In this document: piece after piece, positions 11,353-32,552 of the stretch
Position numbering within the stretch: position 1 is the first letter of the stretch
Layout of the letters: every line of letters starts with the position of its first letter
From: Candidatus Spongiihabitans thiooxidans
GTDB taxonomy: Bacteria; Pseudomonadota; Gammaproteobacteria; Arenicellales; Poriferihabitantaceae
Direction: 5' to 3'
NCBI GenBank assembly: GCA_001543005.1
Contig: LFLB01000008.1
Span: 1 to 64,000, forward strand
DNA: 64,000 nt
Translations under genes and position numbers: made by a program
The notes under the pieces: model-generated
The model's input: only the letters and a program-made list of their open reading frames with translations
Database searches by the model: none
Told to the model about the DNA's origin: nothing

Positions 11353-12957
11353 TTACGCAAACCACCAGTGTTGAATACCCATATAGCCATCCAGGTCGGC
11401 ATCCGATGCCCAACCATCTTTCAGGTACTGCACTTTCTTTGAGGTAGCCGATACATAGTTATAAAACATCGGCACAATGGCACCGCCTTCGTCACTGACA
11501 ATTCGCTGCATTTCATAATACATGCCGCGTCGTTTGGCATCGTCAAGTTCAGTACGCGCCTGCACCAGTAGTTGATCAAACTTCTCATGTTTGAAATGAG
11601 TGTCATTCCAAGGTACGCCTGTGGCATAAGCGGTCGAAAACATCTGGTCCTCGACTTGTCTGCCGCCCCAGTAGCACGCGACGAATGGTTTGGTCAACCA
11701 TATATTATCCCAATACCCATCACTCGGCACACGAACCACATTAATGTTAATGCCGGCGGCGTTTGCATGTTCCTTGTACAGTACGCCTGCGTCCACCGCT
11801 CCCGCAAAGGCGGCATCGGCGACGCTAAGATCCACATCCAGCGAGCTAAGCCCGGATTGTTTCAAGTACCACTTGGCTTTTTCGGGGTCGTAAACCCGCT
11901 GCGGCAAGTCTTTGTTGTGGTAACGGTTGGCCGTGGCAATGGGGTGATCATTGCCAACTACGCCGTGGCCTTTCAATATAGTTTTGACCAGCGCTTCACG
12001 GTCAATGGCGTGTTTCAGTGCCATGCGTACATTGTTATCATCAAATGGCGCAACGTCGGTAAACATGGGGAAGGTGTAATGGCCAGTGCCAGTAACTTCC
12101 ACCACATTGACATCACTATTGCGCTCCAACAAGTGTACTGTTTTGAGGTCGCACCGGTCCATCGCGTCGATGGCGCCCGTGGTCAGCGCACTGGTTCTTG
12201 CCACGACGTCAGATATGGTGGTCATTTCGATCTCGTCGAAATGACCGCGCGATTCGTCCCAATAGTTAGCAAACTTTTTCAGGCGAGCGCGCACGCCGGG
12301 CTCATAAGCTGCCATAATGTAAGCGCCTGTACCGACACCGGATTGCCAATCAATCGTGCCGTCGGAGTTGGCCGGGCAGATTTGCACATGGTAATCGTAT
12401 ACGGTGAATGGGAAGTCCGCGTTTCCTCCTTTCAAGGTGAACACAACCGTATTTTTTCCATCCGCCTTTACGCTTTCAATCGGCTCTACAATGGGTTTTG
12501 CGGCAGAGGTAGTGCCTTCCGCAACGTGGTGCTTGATTGAGGCGACCACGTCATTGGCATCCAGTGTTTTGCCATTGTGAAACTCAACCCCTTTGCGTAA
12601 TTTGAAAGTCCAGGTGACGGCGTCGGGCGAGGCCTCCCAACTTTCCGCCAATTCGCCAACCAGTTCATTGGTGTTGGTATATCGAACCAGGTTGTTGCGC
12701 ACGCCGCCGCGCAACATCACCTGCGAAAATAAACTGGTGATTAAACCCGGGTCCAATGAATCGGTGGTATTGCCGGCACCAATCCCGACTCGGAATACAC
12801 CGCCTTTTTTGGGTGCAGCGTTGGCCGCTTCGCTGTACAAACTTGGCGCCAGTGCGCCTACACCCAATGCCATGGCACTGGTCATAAACGCTCGGCGGCT
12901 CATTTGATTTTCGATAACTTGTGATTGAAGTTTTTTAATTTCTTTGTCTAAATTCAT
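11353..12957 (-). CDS. Tat-exported ABC substrate-binding protein, SBP family 5 (cluster 1)
   Basis: The 534-residue periplasmic binding protein belongs to family 5 (DppA/OppA-like). The chosen ATG at 12957 is preceded by GGGGAG with 7-base spacing. The N-terminus carries a cytoplasmic helix (about 1-20), then a twin-arginine motif SRRAFM (about 22-27), a hydrophobic stretch and a likely cleavage after an Ala-rich NAA. This indicates export folded through Tat. The mature part has the usual family-5 features (LAESWEASPDAVTWTFKLRKGV; HAIDREALVKTILKGHG). It should deliver peptides or other amphipathic solutes to the downstream permeases. The first ~55 residues are almost identical to those of the paralogue at 16791-18392, whereas the mature parts differ considerably. 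Confidence 0.92.
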   Translation of the reverse strand: MNLDKEIKKLQSQVIENQMSRRAFMTSAMALGVGALAPSLYSEAANAAPKKGGVFRVGIGAGNTTDSLDPGLITSLFSQVMLRGGVRNNLVRYTNTNELVGELAESWEASPDAVTWTFKLRKGVEFHNGKTLDANDVVASIKHHVAEGTTSAAKPIVEPIESVKADGKNTVVFTLKGGNADFPFTVYDYHVQICPANSDGTIDWQSGVGTGAYIMAAYEPGVRARLKKFANYWDESRGHFDEIEMTTISDVVARTSALTTGAIDAMDRCDLKTVHLLERNSDVNVVEVTGTGHYTFPMFTDVAPFDDNNVRMALKHAIDREALVKTILKGHGVVGNDHPIATANRYHNKDLPQRVYDPEKAKWYLKQSGLSSLDVDLSVADAAFAGAVDAGVLYKEHANAAGININVVRVPSDGYWDNIWLTKPFVACYWGGRQVEDQMFSTAYATGVPWNDTHFKHEKFDQLLVQARTELDDAKRRGMYYEMQRIVSDEGGAIVPMFYNYVSATSKKVQYLKDGWASDADLDGYMGIQHWWFA

Positions 12958-13035
12958 GTGCATTCTCCCCAAAAAAAATGAAAAATTATTCTCCCGGCTA
13001 CTTAAAGATTGGGCGGGAAGTCTTAGTTTATAATT
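12958..13035 (-). promoter_or_regulatory. Conserved hairpin leader of ABC cluster 1
   Basis: Immediately upstream of the binding-protein start, the minus-strand leader contains CTTCCCGCCC pairing with GCCGGGAG, followed by an AATAATTTTT tract and then the ribosome-binding site. The leader of the paralogous cluster (18393-18480) keeps the same order of elements. This could be an attenuator-like or stabilising structure. Its role is inferred only from conservation between the two copies. The remaining spacer to 13221 shows no gene. Confidence 0.4.
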
Positions 13036-13221
13036 GTGACTTTGCAATACTCAACTAATCCGTGTCAAAAGTCAACCATATGTATAAGTCCACCCCCTAT
13101 GGGACAAAACAGGCATGCGAAAATCCGTGGATCAATGACAGCGGTCTGGCTTGAACAGAGGCAGGAACCAGTCTCAGTCTCATAGGTGTCTGAGCCCGGA
13201 CACAGGCACTGAACTGTTTTT

Positions 13222-16790: not shown

Positions 16791-18392
16791 TTAAATGAAC
16801 CACCATCGAGCGATGCTTCGACAGCCATCCATCTCAAAGTTACCCGCCAGTTTGTCGGGCCGGCCCAGTTTGTCGGAAGCGGCATCAACGTTGTTGACGA
16901 AGCAGGGGATTACCGAGCCGCCTTGGTCGCGACAAATCGACTGCATTTCCCGGTAGATATCGCCACGCTTGGCTTCGTCGAGTTCGGCGCGACCGGCGAC
17001 CAGCAACTCTTCGAATCTCGCGTTGTCCCAGAAGGTTTCGGTCCAGTTTCCGCCGGCCGCCCAGCCAATGGTGAACATCCAGTCGGCGGTCGGGCGGCCA
17101 CTCCAGTAACTCGCACTCCAAGGCACTTTCATCCAGGTATTGCTCCAGTAGCCATCGGCTGATGCGCGTTTGACGGTAAGGTTGATATTCGCCGCTTTAA
17201 GCGCCTCAGCATAGAGCTGGGTGGCGTCGACTGCGCCGTCAAAGGCGGCGTCGGAGGCCGACATCTCCACATCGAGACTGCTAAGGCCGGCCTGCTTGAG
17301 ATGCCATTTGGCTTTTTCCGGGTCATATTTGCGTTGTGGCAGGTCGGAGGCATGGTAGTTCTGCGATGTACCGATCGGATGGTCGTTGCCAAGCGCACCG
17401 TAGCCTCTCAACACCGCATTCACAAATGCGTCGCGGTCAATGCCGAGTTTTAACGCCAGACGAACGTCGTTATTATCGAACGGCGCCAGGCGCACATCCA
17501 TCGGGTAAGTGTAATGCTTGGTACCCGCGATTTGCAGAACGCTAATGCCTGGCTTGCTGTCCAGCAGGTGAGCGGTCTTCAAATCACAGCGAGCGATAGC
17601 ATCGACCTGTCCGGTGGTCATTGCATTCATGCGTGCCGCCACGTCGTTGATAGCAATCGCTTTGACTTCGTCGAAGTTGCCTTCATCCGGCTTGAAGTAA
17701 CTCGGGTGACGCACCAGATCAGCACGAACGCCCGGCTCGAAATTCTTGAGGCTGTAAGGGCCGGTGCCGTCACCGGCATGCCAGTCGATCTTGCCATCGC
17801 TGCCCACCGGGCCAATGGTGATGTGGTAGTCACTGAGCAGGAATGGAAAGTCGGCATTGCCGCTTTCGAGTTCAAAAATGATGGAATTCTTGCCATCTTT
17901 TTTGATCTTGCCCATGGACTCAGCCACCGATTTGGCCGCTGAATCAGTCGCTTCACCACGGTGATGCTCTATCGACGCAATAACGTCATCGGCATCGAGA
18001 GTTTTGCCGCTGTGGAATGTGACGCCCTGGCGTACCTTGACCACCCAGGTCGCGGCATCGGCAGAGGGCTCGAGGCTTTCAGCAAGTTCGGGTATTGCCT
18101 GGCCATCTGCGGTGACTTCGGTGATACAGTTGCGCACCGCGCCTTGCGCCACAGTGATCATAAAATTGTCACTATTGGTGCCGGTATCAAAATTGTCGCC
18201 AGTATTGGCGGCCGGGAGACCGACGCGATACAAACCGCCTTTTTTAGGGGCCGCTTTGGCCGCTTCGCTGTACAAACCTGGCGCCAACGCGCCCACACCC
18301 AGAGCCATAGCGCTGGTCATAAATGTGCGGCGGCTCATTTGATTTGCCGAAACTTGCGACTGAAGTTTCTTAATTTCTTTGTCTAAACTCAT
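16791..18392 (-). CDS. Tat-exported ABC substrate-binding protein, SBP family 5 (cluster 2)
   Basis: The 533-residue periplasmic binding protein is a DppA/OppA-like family 5 member. ATG 18392 is supported by GGAGGAG about 8 bases upstream. Tat signal SRRTFM follows an N-terminal helix (MSLDKEIKKLQSQV), and the signal region is nearly the same as in the paralogue at 11353-12957. The ligand-binding lobes diverge more, suggesting a different solute. It is the first gene of the second importer operon. The first 43 codons open upstream of this ATG are not used in this call. Confidence 0.92.
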   Translation of the reverse strand: MSLDKEIKKLQSQVSANQMSRRTFMTSAMALGVGALAPGLYSEAAKAAPKKGGLYRVGLPAANTGDNFDTGTNSDNFMITVAQGAVRNCITEVTADGQAIPELAESLEPSADAATWVVKVRQGVTFHSGKTLDADDVIASIEHHRGEATDSAAKSVAESMGKIKKDGKNSIIFELESGNADFPFLLSDYHITIGPVGSDGKIDWHAGDGTGPYSLKNFEPGVRADLVRHPSYFKPDEGNFDEVKAIAINDVAARMNAMTTGQVDAIARCDLKTAHLLDSKPGISVLQIAGTKHYTYPMDVRLAPFDNNDVRLALKLGIDRDAFVNAVLRGYGALGNDHPIGTSQNYHASDLPQRKYDPEKAKWHLKQAGLSSLDVEMSASDAAFDGAVDATQLYAEALKAANINLTVKRASADGYWSNTWMKVPWSASYWSGRPTADWMFTIGWAAGGNWTETFWDNARFEELLVAGRAELDEAKRGDIYREMQSICRDQGGSVIPCFVNNVDAASDKLGRPDKLAGNFEMDGCRSIARWWFI

Positions 18393-18480
18393 GTGTATTC
18401 TCCTCCAGAATAGATGAAAATTATTCTCCCGCCTCCAGATTATCGCACAGCGATTGGGTGGGAGGTCTTGATTTGTAATT
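18393..18480 (-). promoter_or_regulatory. Conserved hairpin leader of ABC cluster 2
   Basis: The minus-strand leader has CTCCCACCC pairing with GGCGGGAG, followed by AATAATTTTC and a strong GGAGGAG ribosome-binding site. It matches the cluster 1 leader in order and in both arms, while the loop between the arms differs in length and sequence. Covariation-like changes in the stem hint at an RNA-level function, but two sequences are too few to be sure. Confidence 0.4.
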
Positions 18481-18559
18481 TTATACATAATAACGCCTTT
18501 TTTTGTTTCAATGCAATCCATTTTGCATTATTTATCATTAACACACTGGGATGCCCATT

Positions 18560-18648: not shown

Positions 18649-18700
18649 CGTTCCCACGCTCCCACCACTCCTCGTTCCCACGCAGGAGCATGGGAACGAG
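18649..18700. repeat. REP-like palindrome (cgttccca family)
   Basis: The unit is a cgttccca-type half followed by ccaccactcct, then a second full palindrome with arms cgttccca and tgggaacg. Organisation is the same as at 24783-24835, including the ccaccact spacer. Together the two copies frame the large surface-protein pseudogene. Confidence 0.7.
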
Positions 18701-19295
18701 AAATAACACACACTGGGACGCCTATTCGACTGAATGAAGAGTTGCGCTTATGATGTGAATTCGCCTTTGTAGGTTAACATAAACAAAATAGTTACCTAAG
18801 TTTATTAAGGATAAGGTCAAGTGTTCATTGGAAATTTTATGTTCAGTATCTTGATGGATTGTATATTGTGGAGCGTAGAAGGCGAGCGGGTTATTCCGGT
18901 TGTTATTAGCGCCCCGGTGTTCGCCGGCGAGGCCCGTAGGCGCCCAACTGAGCGGTCTTGACGTCGTGCTTCGTCCCGGTCAATACGGTATTTGCTCCCG
19001 AGTCGGGGGGGGTGATTACGCGAAGTCGTTGCTCCCGCCTCGGCGCGTCGCTTGTCCTCGCCGTCGCCCTCCTCACTGCTTTGGCGTCCCAGCGCGTCAG
19101 CGCGCAGGGGGTTCCTGCCCCCCCGGTCTGCGACCGCACCGAGCAAGTGCGAGTCACAATCTTGGCGGCTATCGGCGTGTCCGACTGTGGCGATGTCACT
19201 GCCGAACAATTGAGACAGGTCACGCTCCTTAGTTTGTTTAACATGGACATCAGCGCCTTGAAATCAGGCGACTTTGCCGGTCTGACCAGCCTATA

Positions 19296-19508
19296 ACCAA
19301 CCTGTTTCTGTACAACAATTCACTGACCACGCTACCCGCCGGCGTCTTTGACGGTCTGACCAACCTGACCAACCTGTTTCTGTACAACAATTCACTGACC
19401 ACGCTGCCCGCCGGCGTCTTTGCCGGCCTGACCAAACTGACCTTCCTGTACTTGTACAACAATTCACTGAAGACGCTGCCCGTCGGCATCTTTAACGGCC
19501 TCAACCTG
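19296..19508 (+). repeat. 72-bp LRR-coding tandem repeats
   Basis: About three units of 72 bp (24 residues, consensus LxNLFLYNNSLTTLPAGVFxGL) start at 19296, 19368 and about 19440. The first two are nearly identical in DNA. The pattern is the LPxGVFxGL leucine-rich repeat also seen in lamprey variable lymphocyte receptors and many bacterial surface proteins. Confidence 0.75.
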
Positions 19509-21189
19509 ACAATCCTGTCGCTGGACCGGCTGGCGCCGACCGGCTTGACCGGCCTGACCGCCACGACCGGGGCCGGCCAAATCGCATTGAGCTGGACCGC
19601 GCCGCCCATCGGCCGGGGCACTTTCAGGGGCGCGAACTATGCCACCACCATTACCGGCTATCGCATTCAGGTCTCCACGGCTGGCAGCGCCTTCACCGAT
19701 CTGGTGGCCAACACCGGGAGCGCTGACACCACCTACACGCACACCGGCCTGAACTTGGATGACACGCATAACTATCGGGTGGCCACCCTCATTATGGATA
19801 GCACGAATACCCAAGCCGGGCGCCCAGATCTTTATGGTCGGCATATCGGTCAGCGTGGAACTGCCGCAAGCCACCGACGACATCGGGCCGTACACCTACA
19901 CCCTGACCGGGCCGAACGACGCGGCTGTGAGCGCCACCGTCCCAGGCCTGACCTTTGACCCTGAAAGCCGCATCCTGTCTGGCGCACCGGTTACCGCCGC
20001 CGCTCCCGTCACGCTGACCTACAGGGTCACCGGCAAATTCGGCACCACCGCCATGCAGACCTTTTCCGTGACCGTCGGCCTCGCGTCGGCACGTACCCCC
20101 GATGCGTCGACTAATCTGATAGCAACCCCGATGGGCACCCAGGTAGCGCTAACCTGGACAGCCCCGAGCAATAACGGCGGTGCTGCTATTATCGGCTACA
20201 CGCTGCAACGCGCAGAAGGTACGAGTGGTGGCACATTCAACAATGTTTCTGGCACAGTTACCGGCACCAGCCACACCGATACCGGACTAAGCCCCGGCAC
20301 CGGGGATTATTCTAATGGGTTACTGCCAGCATTGTTTCCGTCGATGACTTTATCACCACTTGGCGGACAACCACTGCGAGTGAGCAAATCACCTTCCCCG
20401 GCGAAGGGGCTTATAGTATTGACTGGAGAGACGGCACGACTGAGCAAGTAACCGGTGCAACTACTCACAGCTACGCCACCGCCGGCGACTACGACATCAT
20501 CGTTAGCAACAACATTACCCACTTTAACTTAAATGATGGCGCGGACAAAGACAAACTCATAGAGGTCAAACAGTGGGGGACTGCGTCCTGGAGGAATATG
20601 GAAGGCGCATTTCGTGGTGCCAGCAATATGCAGATAACCGCCACAGAGAAGCCTGACCTTTCGGGGGTTACTTCCATGGCGGTAATGTTCTTTGGTGCCT
20701 ACACCTTTAACGGCAACATTAGCGGCTGGAATGTTAGCGCGGTAACGAATATGTCTTTCATGTTCTTTCACGCCACCGCCTTTAACGGCGACATCGGCGG
20801 CTGGGATGTTAGCGCGGTCAGGACTATGGCCTTCATGTTCAAAGACGCCACCGCCTTTCGCCAAAATCTGGGTCTCTGGTATATTGTGCCTGGCACAACC
20901 GCCAGCTACGATGGCAAAACGAATCTTGAAGTGCTTGGCCTCAGCGCACAAAATGCCGTTTTAGACGGACAAACCCCAGAATATAGACTGGTTGCAGGCG
21001 AGGGCGATGGCGATAATGGTAGCTTCACCCTCACGGACGGGGCATTAAACATTAAGGCTGCCGAAGCCAGCGGCGGCGACTACCGCATACGCATTGCCGC
21101 CGGCGGTGTGGCATTCGGCACCAATAACGCCAGAGCAATAACCGTGGTCGTGCCAGTAAGCACCCCCGATGCGCCGACTAGCTTGACGG

Positions 21190-21870
21190 CAGTCTCAACC
21201 CCAAATGGCACGGGTGCAACAATAACCTGGACAGCCCCAAGCAATACCGGCGGTGCTGCTATTACCGGCTACACTGTCCAACGCGCACCAGGTACGAGTG
21301 GTGGCACATTCGCCACCGTCAGCCCTGCACACACTGGCACCGGGACCACTTATACCGATAGCGGACTAAGCCCCGGCACCACCTATCGCTACCAGGTTGC
21401 CGCTAACAACGGCACACGCACCAGTGCTACTGCTGAAGCCAGCGTAACCACCTTTGCCGTCCCCGATGCCCCGACCATCTCGACGATAGTCTCAACCTCA
21501 AATGGCACGGGTGCAACAATAACCTGGACAGCCCCAAGCAATACCGGTGGTGCTGCTATTACCGGCTACACTGTCCAACGCGCACCAGGTACGAGTGGTG
21601 GCACATTCGCCACCGTCAGCCCTGCACACACTGGCACCGGGACCACTTATACCGATAGCGGACTAAGCCCCGGCACCACCTATCGCTACCAGGTTGCCGC
21701 TAACAACGGCACACGCACCAGTGCTACTGCTGAAGCCAGCGTAACCACCTTTGCCGTCCCCGATGCCCCGACCATCTCGACGATAGTCTCAACCTCAAAT
21801 GGCACGGGTGCAACAATAACCTGGACAGCCCCAACCAATACCGGTGGTGCTGCTATTACCGGCTACAGGC
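21190..21870 (+). repeat. 297-bp FN3-coding tandem repeats
   Basis: The marker cgggtgcaac recurs at 21211, 21508 and 21805, a period of exactly 297 bp (99 codons, one fibronectin type III domain plus linker). The first two units are almost identical; the third matches for only its first ~60 bp before diverging. This indicates a recent unequal-crossover or slippage duplication. Confidence 0.85.
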
Positions 21871-23540
21871 TAGAACGCGCAGGAACGGACGGCTCATTCT
21901 CCTCTGTATACACTGGTCCCAGTACCAATTATGTCGACCGCAATCTACCCACCGGCACCACCTATCGCTACCGGGTTCTCGCTACTAACGACGTAGGCGA
22001 AGGTTCTTATTCTACTGAAGCCGACGTAACCATCTTTGCCGTCCCCGATGCCCCGACCAACGTGGTGGTAGTTTTAATACGCGGAAGTGGCACGAGTGCA
22101 AGATTAACCTGGGGAGAACCGACCAAGACGGGCGGCGATGTCATCACCGGCTACGCCATCGAACGTGAGAGTGGTGGCTCCACCACCATCATCAGCACTG
22201 GCGCCGGGACCGTGAGCCCTTATGACGATACCGGTTTAACCTTCGGCACCACCTATCGCTATCAGGTTGCCGCTATTAACAGCGCAGGCACCGGTGCTTA
22301 TTCTGGTAGTGTTTTTGTTACTATCAACCCAGCACTAACACTGGCCGCTTCCGACCAGATCTACACGGTAGACGTGGCGAGGAGCCTGACATTGCCAGCA
22401 GCTACTGACGGCACGGCTCCCTACACCTCCTACACCCTAACTCCTTTGCCAGCCAACCTGGCGTTTGATGGCGACGTCACCAAGCGCATCCTGTCTGGCG
22501 CGCCGACTGTAATAACTACGGGAATCGAGCTGACCTACATGGTCACCGATAGCAACGATGTCACTGCTGAGGACACATTCAGGGTCATCGTCAATGCCGC
22601 ACCAGTAGCACTGGAGCTTTCCGATCCGGACGACCTGATATACACTGCCGGGGAGCCGATCACCGATGTGCCATTGCCGAGTGCCGCCGGCGGCACCGGC
22701 ACCCTCAACTACGCCCTGATTGGCACCTTGCCAGACGGACTGACGGTGACCCCAGCGGTCTTCCCGAGCACGACCGCACCAGTAATCAGCGGCATGCCAC
22801 GCACCCAATCAGCTGCGGTCACGCTGACCTACGAGGTCACCGACAGTGCCAGCACGCCCATCACCAAGACGCAGACCTTCACCATCACCGTTAACCCGGC
22901 GCTGACGCTTACCAAGCCAGCCGACCGGATGTTCACTGCCAATATGGCGATTGGCGATGTGCCATTGCCGGGCGCCACCGCGCCGTACACCTACGCCTTG
23001 ACCGGGCCGAACGATGTGGCTGTGGGTGCCGCTATCCCCAACCTGAGCTTTGACCGCACCACCCACATCCTGTCCGGCACGCTGACCGGGGATGTAGAGA
23101 CGGTCACGCTGACCTACACGGTTACCGATAGCAACGGTGCTACTGCTGAGGATACCTTCACCGTCACTGTCAATGCCGCACTAACGCTGAACGCACCCAG
23201 CGATCAGACCTACACGATGGGCACGAGGATCACCACTCTGACATTGCCCGTGGCAGCAGGTGGCACCGGCGCCCTCAGCTACACGCTGACCGGCGACCTG
23301 CCGGCCGGACTGAGCTTTGATGCCGACACCCGTATGCTGAGTGGTACGCCGAAAACGGAGGGGACAACCACGCTGACCTACAGGGTCACCGACACCAACG
23401 GCGCCAGCGCTGAGGTCACCTTCACAGTCACCGTCAATGCCGGACTAACGCTGAACGCACCCAGCGATCAGACCTACACCCTGAACACGGCGATTGCCGA
23501 TCTGACATTGCCCGTAGCCGCAGGTGGTACGGCTCCCTAC

Positions 23541-23890
23541 ACCTACACCCTGACCGGCACCCTGCCAACCGGACTGAACTTTAATGCCGCCACCCACATG
23601 CTGAGGGGTACGCCGACTGTGGTCACAGCCGCGGTCACGCTGACCCACACGGTCCTTGATGCCAACGGTGCCGCAGCTCTTGCCACATTCACGGTTACCG
23701 TCACCCTCGCGCCGCTGGCACTTACCGATCCAGCGAACCAGACATTCACTGTCGGAGCGAGGATCACCGATCTGACATTGCCGCAAGCCACCGGCGGTAT
23801 CGGGTCGTACACCTACACCCTGACCGGCACCCTGCCAACCGGACTGAACTTTAATGCCGCCACCCACATGCTGAGGGGTACGCCGACTGC
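23541..23890 (+). repeat. Duplicated segment in Ig-like domains
   Basis: A stretch of about 75 bp encoding YTYTLTGTLPTGLNFNAATH and the following residues occurs at about 23541 and again, identical by eye, at about 23811. The spacing matches one putative-Ig domain (~270 bp), so neighbouring domains have exchanged or duplicated sequence recently. Confidence 0.75.
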
Positions 23891-24782
23891 GGTGGCAGCA
23901 GCGGTCACGCTGAGCTACAGAGTCACCGACAGCGCCACCCCGTCCGCCACCGAGACGCAAGAATTCACCATCACCATTGACCCAGAGAACGGTTTCGCCG
24001 AACTCAACGAAGCCATTTCGCTGCAAATCGTTAGTGCCATAGTCAGCAATACAACCGGCGCAATTGGGGACAGAACAAGTAAAGCTGCCAGCGGTATCGT
24101 TGCTGCTGTTTCATGGGACGAGCAAATAAGCAAATCCCTGACCTCACTATCGAATAGCAATGGCGACATCGACCTCAAAAAAGCCCTCAGCACCGTTGAT
24201 ATTGCGATGCCATTATTAAACGCCAGCGGCTCTAATGCCCGAAACTCACTCTCCTTATGGATCGGTGGTAACTACCGCAACATTAGTGGCAAAAGGGGCG
24301 TAATCAATTGGGACGGCGAGCTATACGGTATTAATGCTGGCATAGACACCCAAATTGCCAAAAACATTCTGGCAGGTGTCGCCGTCTCATGGTCGCAAGG
24401 CGACCTGGATTACAAAAATGACGACAAAAAAGGCGACTACGAAATTGATATGTTAAGCGTCAACCCCTATCTTGGCTGGAATATTGGCAAAGTTGATATG
24501 TGGGGAACGCTCGGCTACGGGCAAGGTAATTTAGAAACCACCCCGGAAATGACCTTAACCTGATCAATGCAGCCTTGGGTGCCAGCGGCGAAATATGGCG
24601 CAACGAAAACACCCAATTGCGCTTAAAAAGCGAAGCCAGTACTGCTCGTCTGGAAGTCGAAAAAAGTAAACAAGACGGTAGTGTAGACCAAGACATTGAT
24701 ACCTTCCTATTACGTTTAGGCTTATCAAGCAATAACACGAGGTACAGTTTTAATTAACGCTACACTTGCCCCCTGATTGACG

Positions 24783-24835
24783 CGTTCCCATGCTCTCCAC
24801 CACTTCTCGTTCCCACGCGGGAGCATGGGAACGAG
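24783..24835. repeat. REP-like palindrome (cgttccca family)
   Basis: This copy has the same layout as 18649-18700: a half-site, a ccaccactt spacer, then a palindrome with arms cgttccca and tgggaacg. The spacer 24758-25126 contains only this element and two copies of ggacttatacan.gaaattg (about 24895 and 25072). Confidence 0.7.
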
Positions 24836-25126
24836 TCACTAAAATCAGAGTTTTAAGACCTGAAAATTAAAGTTGAGACTCTATGTGTGGATTTGGGACT
24901 TATACAGAAATTGCAATAACATAAATAATTATCTATACTTTCTTAACCAACAACCCGTTTTTAAGGTGGAAGCATGCAATTTAAAGAGTACCTTGTTTGC
25001 CAACAAACGCATCGGCCTACAATCTCCTGTAAACTTTCTCATCCATAATCAACCCGAGTGCCAAAGGGGTTGGACTTATACACGAAATTGACATGCAATG
25101 ACGCAATAGGTACAGTCCACTTTCAT

Positions 25127-25213
25127 GCCGGGGTGGCGGAATTGGTAGACGCGCTAGCTTCAGGTGCTAGTGGGCAATTGCCCGTGAAGGTTCAAGTCCT
25201 TTCCTCGGTACCA
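25127..25213 (+). tRNA. tRNA-Leu (CAG anticodon)
   Basis: This 87-nt cloverleaf has acceptor arm GCCGGGG paired with CCTCGGT (two G-U pairs). The D-arm segment is TGGTAGACGCG and the anticodon stem CTAGC/GCTAG encloses loop TTCAGGT, giving anticodon CAG (codon CUG). A long variable arm typical of leucine tRNAs and a T-arm with GGTTCAAGTCC follow, with encoded CCA. The defence island begins a few hundred bases downstream. Confidence 0.95.
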
Positions 25214-25243
25214 TACCTTAACGCCTACGCGCCAAAATATACT

Positions 25244-25444
25244 ATGCTTAATGCCTGCAGATCTCACTTAGCCGAAGTTGAAGAAAGTTACTTTGAACAC
25301 CAAGGCGTGGCATTTCGTTACGCCGGAAATTGTTTGAAAGCGGCGACAATGGCATTCGTTCACGGAATGGTGCCAGGCTGGTTTCAAACCAGTGCCAGCG
25401 ATCTGGTTAAGAAGCTCGCGAATAATAGAAAACTTCAAGCCTGA
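25244..25444 (+). CDS. Small DUF6356-type protein
   Basis: The 66-residue protein resembles the small DUF6356 family: an N-terminal HxxxVxExYxEHxxxA pattern (here HLAEVEESYFEHQGVA), a hydrophobic middle containing VHGMVPGWF, and a C-terminal helix with LVKKLANN. Function is unknown for the family. It begins 31 bp after the tRNA-Leu and ends 29 bp before hsdM. An open frame runs back through the tRNA, so ATG 25244 was chosen as the first start beyond it. No clear ribosome-binding site is visible. The family assignment is from memory of the pattern. Confidence 0.6.
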   Translation: MLNACRSHLAEVEESYFEHQGVAFRYAGNCLKAATMAFVHGMVPGWFQTSASDLVKKLANNRKLQA

Positions 25445-25473
25445 TTCATGGTTGCACAGGGCCGCCGTACCGC

Positions 25474-27621
25474 ATGCCACAACTCGAACACATTGAAGTG
25501 ATTGAACGGCGTCTCTGGGGCGCGGCGGACACGCTACGCGCGAACTCCAACTACGCCAGCAATGAATACTTCCTGCCGGTCATGGGCCTGGTGTTCCTGC
25601 GCCATGCCTACAGCCGCTACCTGGCGGTCAAGGACAAGATCGAGGCCAATCTGCCCACCCGCGGCGGCCGGAAACGAGCACCGACCAAAGAGGACTTCTC
25701 CCAGCAGAGCGCCATTTTCCTGCGGCCCGAGGCGCGGTTCGACCATCTCGTGGCGCTGCCCGACAGCAATGACCGCGCCAGGGCCATTAGCGATGCAATG
25801 GAGTCCATCGAGGCTGACTACGCAAGTTTGCGCGGCGTCCTGCCCAAGGGCGAATATCAGGAACTGGACAACGATGTCCTCGGCCAACTCCTGCGCACCC
25901 TCAACCCCGACGAACTCAAGCAGGTGTCAGGTGATGTGTTCGGCCGCATCTACGAATACTTCCTGACCCAGTTCGCCGACCAGAAAGCCCACGACGGCGG
26001 CGAGTTCTTCACGCCGGTCTCATTGGTGTCGCTGATCGCCCACGTGCTCGACCCCGACCGCGGCACCGTATTCGACCCGGCCTGCGGCTCCGGCGGCATG
26101 TTCGTGCAGAGCGCCCGCACCGTGGAGGAACACGGTCAAAACCCCACCGAGCGGCTCACCTTCCGCGGCCTGGAGAAGAATGAAACCACCATCCGTCTGG
26201 CCAAGATGAACCTGGCCGTCCACGGCCTCGAAGGCGACATCAAAAAGGCCATCACCTACTACCAGGACCCGCACGCGTTGCTGGGCAAGGCCGACTATGT
26301 GATGGCCAATCCTCCCTTCAACGTGGACGAGATAGACGCCGACAAGATCAAGACCGACCCGCGTCTGCCTTTCGGCCTGCCCGGCGTCAACAAAAAGGAC
26401 AAGGTTTCCAATGGCAACTATGTCTGGATCAGTTACTTCTACAGTTACCTGAACGAGAAGGGGCGGGCCGGCTTCGTCATGTCATCCCAAGCCTCCAGCG
26501 CCGGCGGCGGCGAGGCAAAAGTGCGGCAGAAACTGGTGGAGAGCGGCGACGTGGACGCGATGATCGCCATCCGCTCCAACTTCTTCTACACCCGCACCGT
26601 GCCCTGCGAGTTATGGTTCCTGAACCGCGCCAAACCCGGGAAACACCGCGACAAAGTGCTGATGATTGACGCGCGCAATGTGTATCGGAAAGTTACGCGC
26701 AAGATCTACGACTTCAGCCCCGAACAACAGCACAACCTGCTGGCCATCGTCTGGCTCTACCGCGGCGAGACCGGGCGCTACCTCGACCTGGTGTCCGGCT
26801 ACTGCGCCCGCACCCTGGATGAAAGCCAGGCCTGCTGCGGCGCCGGGAATGAACAGGGTCAGGAGGTTAAACCATTGCCCGATTTCCTCGCCGCGCTCAC
26901 CAGTTTGCAGGACGCGCTGGCCCCCTTCCTCAAAACCCTGGCTACGGACGATGCGCACGCCGCGGCGTCCAAAGAACTGATGGATGCCCTGCCCGTATTC
27001 AAGGTCAATGTGGACGCCTTCAACAAGGCGGTCGCCACAGAGCAGGCGGCATGGAGCCGTCAAAAAACCGACAACGGCGCCCTCAAACAGGCCGTGGAGC
27101 GCCTCGCCCCGTTAACCGAGACCAGCCGCGACCTCATCAGGCAGACCGACCTGCTGTATAAATTCGCCACCCGCCTGATAGAAACCTGCGAGAAAGAATG
27201 TGGCGCCAGGTCCAGCGACGCCTGGAACGGCCGCGACATCACCCGCGCTCGAAAAGAAGCCGATCGTTTTCGATTACTACTCACATCGCACGACATCAAG
27301 AAACCGGTTGATGAATGGGGTGTGCTTCCCAGGGTGCGCTACTTCTGGCGCCAGGCCCACTGGCTCACCGAGCGTTTCCCCGAAGCCGAACTCTGCGATG
27401 TGGAAGGGCTGGTCAAACTGGTTGCCCGCGAAGAGATTGCCGCCAACGACTGGAGCCTGACCCCCGGCCGCTATGTGGGCGTCGCCCCCGAGGAGGAAGA
27501 CGCGGACTTCGACTTTGAAGAGTCCCTGCGCGAGATACACATCGAACTGGAAGACCTCAACGCCGAAGCCGTCACTCTGGCGGCGACCATCAAAAAGAAC
27601 TTCGAGGAGTTGGGGATATGA
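25474..27621 (+). CDS. hsdM: Type I restriction-modification DNA methyltransferase subunit HsdM
   Basis: The 715-residue protein is the modification subunit of a type I R-M system. It has an N-terminal HsdM helical domain (about 1-150) and a SAM-binding motif FDPACGSGGMF starting at residue 200. The catalytic N6-adenine motif NPPF is at 279-282, and a long C-terminal helical region (about 480-715) ends in a coiled segment used for subunit contacts. With HsdS it methylates adenine in the recognition sequence; with HsdR it forms the restriction complex. It is the first gene of the island operon and its stop overlaps the next gene by four bases. GC content is clearly higher than in the hsdS-Argonaute part downstream. 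Confidence 0.96.
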   Translation: MPQLEHIEVIERRLWGAADTLRANSNYASNEYFLPVMGLVFLRHAYSRYLAVKDKIEANLPTRGGRKRAPTKEDFSQQSAIFLRPEARFDHLVALPDSNDRARAISDAMESIEADYASLRGVLPKGEYQELDNDVLGQLLRTLNPDELKQVSGDVFGRIYEYFLTQFADQKAHDGGEFFTPVSLVSLIAHVLDPDRGTVFDPACGSGGMFVQSARTVEEHGQNPTERLTFRGLEKNETTIRLAKMNLAVHGLEGDIKKAITYYQDPHALLGKADYVMANPPFNVDEIDADKIKTDPRLPFGLPGVNKKDKVSNGNYVWISYFYSYLNEKGRAGFVMSSQASSAGGGEAKVRQKLVESGDVDAMIAIRSNFFYTRTVPCELWFLNRAKPGKHRDKVLMIDARNVYRKVTRKIYDFSPEQQHNLLAIVWLYRGETGRYLDLVSGYCARTLDESQACCGAGNEQGQEVKPLPDFLAALTSLQDALAPFLKTLATDDAHAAASKELMDALPVFKVNVDAFNKAVATEQAAWSRQKTDNGALKQAVERLAPLTETSRDLIRQTDLLYKFATRLIETCEKECGARSSDAWNGRDITRARKEADRFRLLLTSHDIKKPVDEWGVLPRVRYFWRQAHWLTERFPEAELCDVEGLVKLVAREEIAANDWSLTPGRYVGVAPEEEDADFDFEESLREIHIELEDLNAEAVTLAATIKKNFEELGI

Positions 27622-28403: not shown

Positions 28404-29495
28404 ATGAGTTGGGAACAGGTCCAATTAGTGGACATCGTTTCTTTGAGGACGGGCAAACTCGATTCCAACGCAGCTGTAGAAGATGGCAGCCACCCATTCT
28501 TCACTTGTGCGCAACAAACGTTCAGGATTGATGAACCTGCATTCAATACAAAGGCAGTCCTATTAGGCGGGAACAACGCCGCTGGTATCTTCCCACTCAA
28601 ATACTACGAAGGGCAGTTCAATGCTTACCAGCGAACGTATGTGATCGAATCCCTTGATCCCAACGTTCTGATTATTCGGTTTCTCTATTATGCGCTCAGG
28701 CCGGCGCTATCGCACTTCCAATCAGCCTCTATCGGGGCTGCTACCCAGTATTTGACTAAAGGAATCCTCGATAGTTTCAAAGTAGGCATACCGCCAATCG
28801 CCACGCAAAATTGCATCGTCTCCATCCTCTCCACCTACGACAACCTGATTGAAAACAACCGACGGCGTATTCAATTGCTGGAACAAGCGGCGTGGCTACT
28901 CTACAAGGAATGGTTCGTCCACCTCCGCTTCCCCGGCCACGAACACACCACCATCACCAACGGCATCCCGGCAGGGTGGGAGAGGAAGACCTTAGGCGAT
29001 GTAGTAAAGGTGGTAAAGGGAAAGAACATCACAAAGGATTCGGTCAAGAACGGTTCCGTGCCAGTTGTCGCCGGTGGTTTATCTCCAGCCTATTACCACG
29101 ATACGGCTAATGCGGTGGGACCAGTCATCACTGTTAGCGCCTCTGGAGCCAATGCTGGATATGTGAACCTCTATCATGAGGACATTTGGGCATCTGACTG
29201 CTCTTATATCAGCACAACGTCAACTGAATATCTATGCTATTTCTACCTGCTTCTCACATCAAAGCAGAAAGAAGTATTCGGTTTCCAAAAGGGTGTTGCA
29301 CAGCCTCATGTCTATCCGAAGGACTTGCAAAGGTTGCCATTGTTTGAACCAACAAAAAACATTGTCAGGTTATTTGAGGAATTTGTTTTATGCAATTTCA
29401 AGCAAGTCAAGATACTTCTTGCACAAAACAAGTTACTCACCCAAGCCCGCGACCTGCTCCTGCCACGTTTGATGAACGGAGTTATATCAATGTGA
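28404..29495 (+). CDS. hsdS: Type I restriction-modification specificity subunit HsdS
   Basis: The 363-residue protein has two target-recognition domains separated by conserved helices. TRD1 covers about 1-130, with the first conserved region (NRRRIQLLEQAAWLLYKEWF) at about 153-172. TRD2 spans about 190-320, with the second (AQNKLLTQARDLLLPRLMNG) near the C-terminus. HsdS chooses the bipartite DNA target for methylation and cleavage. It is slightly short for the family but both halves are complete. A ribosome-binding-like GAGG precedes the ATG. The zeta-like kinase pair separates it from hsdM, and the Argonaute gene begins 8 bp after its stop. Confidence 0.94.
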   Translation: MSWEQVQLVDIVSLRTGKLDSNAAVEDGSHPFFTCAQQTFRIDEPAFNTKAVLLGGNNAAGIFPLKYYEGQFNAYQRTYVIESLDPNVLIIRFLYYALRPALSHFQSASIGAATQYLTKGILDSFKVGIPPIATQNCIVSILSTYDNLIENNRRRIQLLEQAAWLLYKEWFVHLRFPGHEHTTITNGIPAGWERKTLGDVVKVVKGKNITKDSVKNGSVPVVAGGLSPAYYHDTANAVGPVITVSASGANAGYVNLYHEDIWASDCSYISTTSTEYLCYFYLLLTSKQKEVFGFQKGVAQPHVYPKDLQRLPLFEPTKNIVRLFEEFVLCNFKQVKILLAQNKLLTQARDLLLPRLMNGVISM

Positions 29496-29503
29496 ACATA
29501 CGC

Positions 29504-31447
29504 ATGAATAGATACAATTCGATGGATAGTCATCAGGATAGCTATCGTCTTTCCTTAAATTTTCTTCCGTTATTGGATCCAATCCCAGAGTTCACTGTTT
29601 ACCGACAGGCTAAAGATTCACCCCAAGCACTTCGCCCAGATGACCAAGTGCGTTCATACAAGCTCCCGGAAAATATTGAACATTCTCACAATGGCAATCC
29701 ATGGAGTTCCTATTGGATCTCCTATCAGCAACGAGATAATTTTACTTCATTTACTGTTTCAGCTGAAATGAATCTCTGGCTCACCCGCAGTGCGATATTT
29801 TGGGCGCTATCAAATAAAGTCCGTGAAACCCTGCCATCCGACAAATTTAATATTCCGAAAAAGAGCTTTATTGAACAGATAGAATTTGTTCAGAAAACCC
29901 ACAATGAAGGCGAAGAAATTCTCATTATTCAACCATACTTCCTGAAAATAACAAGGCAATTTGGTGTTCTAGCCGATTTTCGTTTCCGTCTTCGGGGTGG
30001 TGTCTCATTTTCACGGCGTGTGCAACAACTCAGCTTAAGTTTGAATAGCGATTATCGCCGTAATTTGGATTACTGTGCGGATAGGTGGTCTCGAATACAC
30101 GAGTTCCTTAACGAAAGAAAAGACATTCTAAAGGATGTTCGTTTACCTAGTGCAAATGATACTCTCAATTTTGCTGAGAGTTTTATCGATCTTTCAGCGG
30201 ATACTTTGGAAAACAAGACGTATATCTTTGGAGATGGAAAACAATCCAAGGAGCAATTTACAGGCCTTCGTAGTTATGGTCCCTTAAAACCGTTAGAAAG
30301 TGGTATTAATCTTCTTTTCATCTTTCGGGAGCAAGATAGACATGCAGCACGTCTTCTGGCTAAAGGCTTGAAAAGCAACCAACCCATTTTCCCTGGATTT
30401 GATAATCTCTTTCGATGCACACTTCAAATAGACAAGGAACCGTTCGTACTTCCTGACCTGAGCCAGGAATCTATTCAAGAGGCATTAATCTACACCCAGC
30501 AGAAAAATGATACTCACTCTACGTTGGTTCCAATCCTTATCTTGCCAGAGGATGACGACAGTTATTTTATTCAGAAGTCCTTGTTTTCTAATGCCTTAAT
30601 TGCTAGTCAGGTCTGCACGTTGAAAACTTTGAAAGATAGCTACTCATTAAAATGGTCTCTCTCTAACATTGCTTTACAAATATTTTGCAAGGCTGGTGGA
30701 TATCCATGGAAGGTGATGCCCTCTAGTGATGACTCACTGATTATTGGCATAAGTCAGTCACACAAATATAGAGAAGACAATGACTATCCACAAATTGAAA
30801 AATACTTTGCCTTCTCTATTATGACGGATAACAGCGGTTTATTTCAGAATTTGCAGATACTCGGTGAAGGAGATAATGAAGATAACTACATAAATGATTT
30901 AAAAAATAATCTGAAAGAAATGCTTATCCGAAAAGTCGGTGATTTTTCTCGCATTGTTGTTCATACATCTTTTAAATTAAAATATCATGAAATAACGGCA
31001 ATCAAGGATGTCATTACTGAGATTGCGCAGGATGAATCATCGTCTTGCCATTTTGTGGTCATGAAAGTAAACCACCAACATCGATTTTTTGGAGTTAATA
31101 AAAGAGTCAATAGTTTGGTGCCTTATGAGGCGACTTATGTCAAGTTGGCGAGGCAAGAATATCTCGTATGGTTCGAGGGGATAGGGCTAGGCAAAACAAC
31201 TGTCAGTAAAGCCTTTCCTGGCCCAACTCATTTAGAAGTGCTGTATAACAGCAATGATGACATTGATCATAAGATATTATTGCAGGACTTAGTCAATCTG
31301 TCAGGAGCCAATTGGCGTGGCTTCAATGCAAAAAGTTCTCCTGTTTCAGTTTATTATTGTCACTTGGTTGCGGATTTTATCCGTAAATTCCATGAGCATG
31401 GCCTACCTATACCTGAAGTAAGGAATATCCAACTGTGGTTCCTTTAG
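29504..31447 (+). CDS. Prokaryotic Argonaute, catalytically inactive, apparently PAZ-less
   Basis: The 647-residue protein reads as an Argonaute. The N-terminal part (about 1-260) has N/L1/L2- or APAZ-like features, including PYFLKITRQFGVLADFRFRL and GLRSYGPLKP. A MID domain (about 262-405) has the guide 5'-phosphate pocket pattern Y354-K358-Q369-K396 (CKAGGYPW). A PIWI domain follows (about 406-647). The first catalytic Asp of PIWI is Ser (IIGIS, 412-416), and the second site reads VVHTSFK rather than HRDG, so slicing activity should be absent. There is little room for a PAZ domain. ATG 29504 is the first start after the hsdS stop; ATG 29522 is possible. It forms a tight pair with the SIR2 gene 10 bp downstream, and both are AT-richer than hsdM and hsdR. 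A guide-directed sensor role is inferred. Confidence 0.85.
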   Translation: MNRYNSMDSHQDSYRLSLNFLPLLDPIPEFTVYRQAKDSPQALRPDDQVRSYKLPENIEHSHNGNPWSSYWISYQQRDNFTSFTVSAEMNLWLTRSAIFWALSNKVRETLPSDKFNIPKKSFIEQIEFVQKTHNEGEEILIIQPYFLKITRQFGVLADFRFRLRGGVSFSRRVQQLSLSLNSDYRRNLDYCADRWSRIHEFLNERKDILKDVRLPSANDTLNFAESFIDLSADTLENKTYIFGDGKQSKEQFTGLRSYGPLKPLESGINLLFIFREQDRHAARLLAKGLKSNQPIFPGFDNLFRCTLQIDKEPFVLPDLSQESIQEALIYTQQKNDTHSTLVPILILPEDDDSYFIQKSLFSNALIASQVCTLKTLKDSYSLKWSLSNIALQIFCKAGGYPWKVMPSSDDSLIIGISQSHKYREDNDYPQIEKYFAFSIMTDNSGLFQNLQILGEGDNEDNYINDLKNNLKEMLIRKVGDFSRIVVHTSFKLKYHEITAIKDVITEIAQDESSSCHFVVMKVNHQHRFFGVNKRVNSLVPYEATYVKLARQEYLVWFEGIGLGKTTVSKAFPGPTHLEVLYNSNDDIDHKILLQDLVNLSGANWRGFNAKSSPVSVYYCHLVADFIRKFHEHGLPIPEVRNIQLWFL

Positions 31448-31457
31448 GACATCAATT

Positions 31458-32552
31458 ATGTTAATTAGTCAATCCAATGACATCATTTTTCTGTTAGGTG
31501 CTGGCGCAAGCGCTGATGCTGGAATTCCCACATCTGAAAATATGATCTGTCGGATTGAGGAAAATCTTAAAGAGAAGGATGACTGGAAAAGATATGATCT
31601 TCTCTATAATCATGTAAAAAGTGCTATTCACTATGCGGCAGGGTTGCGAGGTTGCTTTGGACAGGATATCAACTATAACATTGAGACACTCGTCAACACG
31701 CTCTATGAATTGGAAAGGAATGAGGAACATCCACTATATCCTTTTATAGCGTCTTGGAACTTTCGTTTTGTTGGCTTGGCTCAACCAGACTTTTCCGAAG
31801 TCAAATGCTTTCGCCGGCTCATTCTGAATGATTTGAAAAGGTGGATGTGTCCCGATGATTCTGCTGCCGCAGATTACTATAAAGGATTTATTCTCCTGCA
31901 ACAAAAGCTCAACTTCCCTTTGCTTATTTTCTCTCTTAACTATGATACGTGCGTCGAATGCCTTGCAAGTAAAGCAGAAGGAAAGTTTCAAGTGGAGTCC
32001 GGATTTTCTGGATACGGGCCTCAGCATATATGGGATTGGAGACGATTTAGCGAAAAAGACCAAGGGCCACTCTCACAGATAATTCTTTACAAACTGCATG
32101 GCTCAATCAATTGGAAGCGTGGCGAATCAACAAAGCAATTGTTTTCTGTTGCGCAGATGGAGAGCGTTGATGTAGACAATATGGAGCTGGTTTTCGGTCG
32201 GGATTTCAAGCTAGAGGCCGCTGATCCATATCTTTTCTACGCATACGAGTTTCGACGCTATACGTTACTGGCTAAACTTATCGTTGTCATCGGGTATGGT
32301 TTTGATGATACACACATCAACAAGATGCTTTCTCAAGGACTTCAAGGAGATCCAAACAGAAAGATTCTTATCGTTCAACCAGCCTTAGATGATGCGAAAA
32401 CGAAAAGAATTAAGCAGAAACTTGAATTGGGAAATAGCGGAGATGATAGGCTAATACAATGTCCGAAAAAGGCAAAAGAGTTATTAGAAGACCCAAACTT
32501 ATTTGAATTTTTGCGGGAGAATATCCCAGGGGATACAGACTTGCCATTCTGA
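31458..32552 (+). CDS. SIR2-family NADase effector paired with Argonaute
   Basis: The 364-residue protein is a stand-alone SIR2-like domain of the defence type. NAD-binding GAGASADAGIP lies at 14-24, SLNYD at 159-163, the catalytic-His motif LHGSINW at 213-219 (H214), and VIGYGFDDTHIN at 277-288. In Argonaute-linked and other anti-phage systems such domains hydrolyse NAD+ and stop growth when invading nucleic acid is sensed. No APAZ extension is visible after the SIR2 domain. Start ATG 31458 has AGGA at 8-base spacing, and the gene lies 10 bp behind the Argonaute gene, so co-expression is likely. A deacetylase role is unlikely because the zinc-binding Cys set is absent. Confidence 0.9.
   Translation: MLISQSNDIIFLLGAGASADAGIPTSENMICRIEENLKEKDDWKRYDLLYNHVKSAIHYAAGLRGCFGQDINYNIETLVNTLYELERNEEHPLYPFIASWNFRFVGLAQPDFSEVKCFRRLILNDLKRWMCPDDSAAADYYKGFILLQQKLNFPLLIFSLNYDTCVECLASKAEGKFQVESGFSGYGPQHIWDWRRFSEKDQGPLSQIILYKLHGSINWKRGESTKQLFSVAQMESVDVDNMELVFGRDFKLEAADPYLFYAYEFRRYTLLAKLIVVIGYGFDDTHINKMLSQGLQGDPNRKILIVQPALDDAKTKRIKQKLELGNSGDDRLIQCPKKAKELLEDPNLFEFLRENIPGDTDLPF

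What the first reader, a model, noticed from the sequence alone, without database searches (positions are those of the whole stretch)
19009..24757. Giant adhesin-like gene decaying through at least four frame breaks
Breaks near 19292, 19830, 20313 and 24550 separate domains that clearly belong to one protein (signal peptide, LRR, FN3, Ig-like, BspA-type, autotransporter). The open 4.2-kb middle part is still intact, so decay is recent or expression is phase-switched.
Basis: seen in the sequence. Interest (0 to 1): 0.5.

Follow-up and report, generated by a model that had tools for sequence, protein, structure and literature searches.

The report
Decayed giant surface-adhesin gene
A bacterium's very large surface-attachment gene appears to have been broken recently in at least five places and to have lost part of its outer-membrane anchor, so it looks like an ordinary dying gene rather than a switchable one.

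Summary
One long surface-protein gene (about 19009-24753) is split between reading frames at the four places named. A fifth break was missed: near 24738 the autotransporter barrel lacks 189-224 residues against eight relatives, and the last codons (EVQF-stop, 24739-24753) lie in another frame. The pieces are a signal-peptide-like start, LRR, FN3, Ig-like, FN3, DUF285 (BspA-like), four FN3, six He_PIG and a partial barrel. In relatives of the same family and order, 12 of 14 inspected barrel ends are complete; the other two are cut by an assembly gap or contig end. The only other barrel locus found in this genome (contig C38) is also split over several frames. No slippable repeat lies at any break, and slippage cannot restore the missing barrel part, so phase switching is not supported. 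Ten window genes chosen as controls are full length, which argues against a generally error-ridden sequence; reads were not available. Best reading: recent pseudogenisation of a classical autotransporter-type adhesin, possibly part of a loss of barrel-anchored adhesins in this lineage. Ordinary; interest low.

The parts
19012..19293 (+). Signal-peptide-like start and LRR N-cap (frame 1); first piece
   Evidence: a relative of the signal region in contig C38, of the cap in C9; signal peptide by eye
19288..19298 (+). Break 1: frame 1 to frame 0 at the start of the LRR units
19296..19811 (+). Three 72-nt LRR units followed by an FN3 domain lacking its end (frame 0)
19805..19820 (+). Break 2: frame 0 to frame 1 where the FN3 end is missing and the Ig-like domain begins; deletion-like (by eye)
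19816..20319 (+). Ig-like (He_PIG type) and FN3 domains (frame 1)
20318..20335 (+). Break 3: frame 1 to frame 0 in the last strand of the FN3, just before the DUF285 module (placement by eye)
20331..24548 (+). Open 4.2-kb middle piece (frame 0): DUF285 about 20595-20885, four FN3, six He_PIG, first part of the autotransporter barrel 24258-24557
24548..24575 (+). Break 4: frame 0 to frame 2 in a barrel loop, a few residues short compared with relatives (by eye in the alignment)
24575..24736 (+). Barrel continuation (frame 2)
24736..24739 (+).
24739..24753 (+). Original C-terminus EVQF and stop (frame 1), the same ending as the contig C38 copy (L049:2530-2544)
24783..24835 (+). Dispersed REP-like palindromic repeat after the gene (another copy at 18649-18703 before it)

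Best explanation
This is a recently inactivated gene for a classical (type Va-like) autotransporter adhesin with a modular passenger of LRR, FN3, DUF285 and Ig-like domains. When intact (inferred from its design and relatives), a signal peptide would have taken it to the periplasm, and the C-terminal barrel would have inserted in the outer membrane and displayed the repeats. Shown here: the parts are split by five frame breaks, and the barrel has lost roughly half of its length, so no slippage event could give an anchored protein. The 4.2-kb open piece has no signal peptide in its own frame (by eye) and only part of a barrel. The one other barrel locus found in this genome is broken as well, so the lineage may be losing this class (inferred).
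For: Frames and domains. Barrel compared with relatives: (8 relatives, 189-224 residues missing). Complete C-terminal ends: 12 of the 14 I inspected, out of 19 non-own barrel matches listed. Second broken barrel gene, L049:473-2544, split over frames. Only these two barrel loci were found in the genome with a relative's barrel as query; PF03797 itself finds only the window's. No slippage repeats at the breaks. Ten of ten chosen control genes match nearly the whole length of their family models. If breaks fell evenly, all five landing in this gene and none in the 16.8 kb of control genes has probability about 0.001. No stop in 5682 nt of pieces bounds neutral change since loss at about 0.022 substitutions per site (0.030 from the middle piece alone), against dS of 0.23-0.31 to the C9 paralogue.
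Against: No reads or second assembly of this species could be examined. No 16S gene was found in the assembly, so it may be a metagenome assembly, in which repeats can be misjoined. Pairwise dN/dS with the C9 paralogue is near or above 1 (0.79, 1.13, 1.60); that fits diversifying selection, but would also fit long relaxed constraint. The control genes were chosen, not sampled. The ends of the pieces were set by me at the breaks, so the count of no stops depends on that placement.
Confidence: 0.85

Rival explanations
1. Assembly or base errors: the gene is intact in the organism and the breaks are artefacts of a repeat-rich locus.
For: The gene is full of repeats, up to a 297-nt pair that is 97% alike. 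No 16S was found in the assembly. One paralogue lies on a 9-kb contig and is cut by its end (C15).
Against: None of the five breaks lies in the 297-nt pair (21164-21757); break 1 is at the edge of the 72-nt LRR units, of which the first two are 94% alike. The barrel has only one other, diverged, copy found in the genome. Ten chosen control genes are intact. The C38 relative is broken too, in its own way.
Confidence: 0.12
2. Phase-variable adhesin: slippage at the breaks switches the gene on and off.
For: A G8 run at 19005-19012 lies next to a possible GTG start.
Against: No short tandem repeat above threshold within 60 nt of any of the five breaks. The G8 run is within chance. The barrel deletion cannot be reversed by slippage.
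Confidence: 0.02
3. Silent cassette: the broken copy donates segments to other copies by gene conversion.
For: Paralogues sharing modules exist in C9 (in a different order) and C15.
Against: The longest exact match between the window gene and the C9 stretch is 24 nt, C38 16 nt, C15 15 nt: no trace of recent exchange.
Confidence: 0.03

Closest known systems
Pseudogenised classical autotransporters BmaA/BmaB/BmaC of Brucella (PMC8111173; passages seen)
   Same: Large autotransporter adhesin loci split into several ORFs or having lost signal peptide or barrel, while other strains or species keep them complete
   Different: The passages speak of PATR domains in the passenger; many strains were compared there, whereas here there is a single genome
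FN3/cadherin/autotransporter proteins of sponge-symbiont cyanobacteria (PMC6506613; passages seen)
   Same: Eukaryotic-like FN3 domains combined with an autotransporter domain; a high share of nonsynonymous changes in such genes is mentioned
   Different: The passages I saw do not mention decay of these genes; the host or habitat of the present genome is unknown to me
   Same: Same barrel type, matching the window gene over barrel and part of the passenger
   Different: Complete C-terminal ends; I did not compare their module order with that of the window gene

Membership tests
Classical (type Va) autotransporter, as a working gene | N-terminal signal peptide in frame with the rest | tested here: not met
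   The signal-like start (frame 1) ends at 19293; the rest is in other frames. Signal peptide judged by eye only.
Classical (type Va) autotransporter, as a working gene | Complete C-terminal barrel (PF03797, 255 positions) | tested here: not met
   Only positions 2-102 match in one frame; 189-224 residues missing against eight relatives
Classical (type Va) autotransporter, as ancestor | Barrel homology and a terminal aromatic residue | tested here: met
   46.9 bits against a cut-off of 26; EVQF-stop at 24739-24753
DUF285 / BspA-like surface repeat (PF03382) | Score above the curated cut-off | tested here: met
   101.4 bits against 25
BspA-type LRR_5 (PF13306) | Score above the curated cut-off | tested here: not met
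   22.6 bits against 27.7; the LRR units fit LRR_8 instead (53.1 against 27)
Phase-variable gene by slipped-strand mispairing | Simple repeat tract at the frame breaks | tested here: not met
   None above threshold within 60 nt of the breaks
Pseudogene | Lack of a functional product | not testable with these tools
   Inferred from frames and the missing barrel part; no expression data

The most novel reading that the evidence does not exclude
Both barrel-anchored adhesins found in this genome were inactivated independently, while the paralogue in C9, which has a signal-peptide-like start and an open frame but no barrel (it may itself be truncated), and the C15 paralogue (open to its contig end) keep their frames. 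This would mark a recent change of lifestyle or host contact in which the outer-membrane-anchored adhesin class was dropped.
Probability: 0.25. Interest if true: 0.35.

Novelty: new member of a known kind. Interest (0 to 1): 0.15.

Why it matters
It is a clear snapshot of a giant modular adhesin soon after inactivation, and a caution against reading split adhesin genes as phase variation without checking the barrel. If both barrel genes were really lost recently, this genome would be a place to study loss of surface contact in a lineage whose relatives keep such proteins.

Tried and rejected
Phase variation: no tract at the breaks, G8 within chance. Gene-conversion cassettes: no long shared tracts. 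Fusion of two neighbouring genes at break 3: I first suspected it because in C9 the DUF285 module follows the signal-like start directly, but the FN3 end reads on into the DUF285 piece across the break (by eye), so one gene is simpler. Remnant of the missing barrel further downstream: none convincing in 23971-27000 (beyond 24775 only hits with E of 0.13 or worse). REP flanks in C42 and C35 as further gene remnants: no adhesin-like frame beside them (by eye). Empty-site comparison: the closest homologues of the neighbouring transporter gene lie at or near contig starts in G004 and G003, and in G025 the 2.9 kb before it show no match to the LRR or middle piece; not informative. Naming the organism: no 16S found, left open. 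The scan of named genomes gave one match, 31% identity over residues 243-659 (mostly the FN3 part), in Chengkuizengella marina, not pursued; records of the window's own or very near genomes may be left out there. A comparison with solved structures gave FN3 proteins such as titin and an Ig-like match in a bacterial adhesin; it added nothing decisive. Barrel matches that I did not inspect: 5 of 19 non-own (G012 C77, C158 and C159; G028 C16 and C106).

Full report
What is there. The window is the first 64 kb of contig C17 of a 2.69-Mb, 42-contig assembly, 96.9% complete. Between 19009 and 24753 the + strand carries pieces of one long surface-protein gene in alternating frames: frame 1 (18952-19293), frame 0 (19242-19955), frame 1 (19753-20448), frame 0 (20316-24560), frame 2 (to 24754), and finally frame 1 for the last four codons and stop (24739-24753). 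Pfam finds LRR_8 (53.1 bits) in the second piece. fn3 is below its cut-off in the second and third pieces (21.0 and 24.6 against 25) and strong in the middle piece (147.3 bits, four stretches), which also has He_PIG (114.1 bits, six stretches) and DUF285 (101.4 bits). The first piece (18958-19293) and the last (24530-24754) match no Pfam family at E 0.01 (all). PF03797 covers 24258-24557, model positions 2-102 of 255. The third piece matches the middle piece itself at E 1.1e-18 and 2.6e-15.

The breaks. Break 1 lies at the start of the LRR units. At break 2 the end of an FN3 domain is missing and the frame changes as the Ig-like domain begins. At break 3 the frame changes within the last strand of the next FN3 domain, just before DUF285. 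These three placements rest on comparison with sister repeats by eye. Break 4 is in a barrel loop. Against eight relatives, 189 to 224 residues are missing. The ending EVQF-stop and the bases just after it resemble those of a second autotransporter gene on contig C38 (16 identical bases; L049:2530-2544).

Not a switch. No homopolymer of six or more, no dinucleotide run of four or more units and no run of three or more 3-6-nt units lies within 60 nt of 19292, 19815, 20305, 24555 or 24757. The G8 run at 19005-19012 is the only one in the window, where 2.2 are expected in shuffles. A missing half barrel cannot be restored by slippage.

Not simply bad sequence. Ten window genes (EF-G, dxs, parE, hsdR, glyA, tgt, queA, hemL, murJ, obgE), which I chose because they are easy to recognise, match their NCBIfam models almost end to end. 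With five breaks in 5.7 kb here and none in 16.8 kb of these genes, an even spread of errors has probability about 0.001. This does not exclude misjoining in repeats, and no reads were at hand.

Relatives. In 40 genomes searched (the own genome and 39 relatives), 9 have a match to the middle piece, the own genome included. One search lists 19 non-own matches that reach the barrel; I inspected 14 of them. Twelve have a complete C-terminal end, 11 in F and 1 in W; one is interrupted by Ns (L039) and one by the contig end (L044). Several of the twelve are cut at their 5' side by contig starts (L021, L025, L027, L029, L041), so only their ends are known to be complete. In the own genome a relative's barrel finds only the window gene and C38. 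The C38 gene has its passenger and barrel split over several frames, and its passenger runs directly into mid-barrel. Other paralogues: C9 (L012:3952-5565; signal-like start, DUF285, LRR, part of an FN3, no barrel) and C15 (L013:5826-9050; open to the contig end).

Age. With no premature stop in 5682 nt of pieces, the 95% bound on neutral change since inactivation is about 0.022 substitutions per site (0.030 from the middle piece alone), assuming equal rates and my placement of the piece ends. Simple pairwise dN/dS with C9 is 0.79 (DUF285, 269 codons), 1.60 (LRR cap, 61 codons) and 1.13 (LRR-FN3, 99 codons), with dS 0.23-0.31. An open 4.2-kb frame together with dN/dS near 1 suggests diversification while functional, then recent loss; long relaxed constraint is less likely but not excluded.

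Literature. I searched the held library four times. PMC8111173 (passages) describes pseudogenised type Va autotransporters in Brucella, the closest known phenomenon I found. PMC6506613 (passages) describes FN3-cadherin-autotransporter proteins in sponge symbionts. I see nothing here that goes beyond such known cases.

Noticed in passing
L049:473-2544 (contig C38): A second, smaller autotransporter gene of the same genome, split over several frames and with part of its barrel missing.
   Followed up: partly
29390-32552: A pAgo (PADLOC pAgo_II, E 1.5e-203) next to a SIR2 protein (Aga_SIR2, E 5.7e-121), inside a type I restriction-modification locus (hsdM 25474, hsdS 28404, hsdR 34257) just after tRNA-Leu.
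   Followed up: partly
18649-18703, 24783-24835: REP-like palindromic repeat on both sides of the gene; 24 matches to the 24760-24860 stretch in the genome, itself included.
   Followed up: partly
L012:3952-5565 (contig C9): Paralogue with DUF285 before LRR (the reverse order of the window gene), ending within an FN3 domain and without a barrel.
   Followed up: partly
19005-19012: G8 run just before a possible GTG start; within chance by shuffling.
   Followed up: yes
11353-13047 and 16791-18521: Two nearby peptide-transporter substrate-binding genes, 55% identical, each accompanied by permease and ATPase genes: looks like a duplicated operon (gene names by inspection).
   Followed up: no
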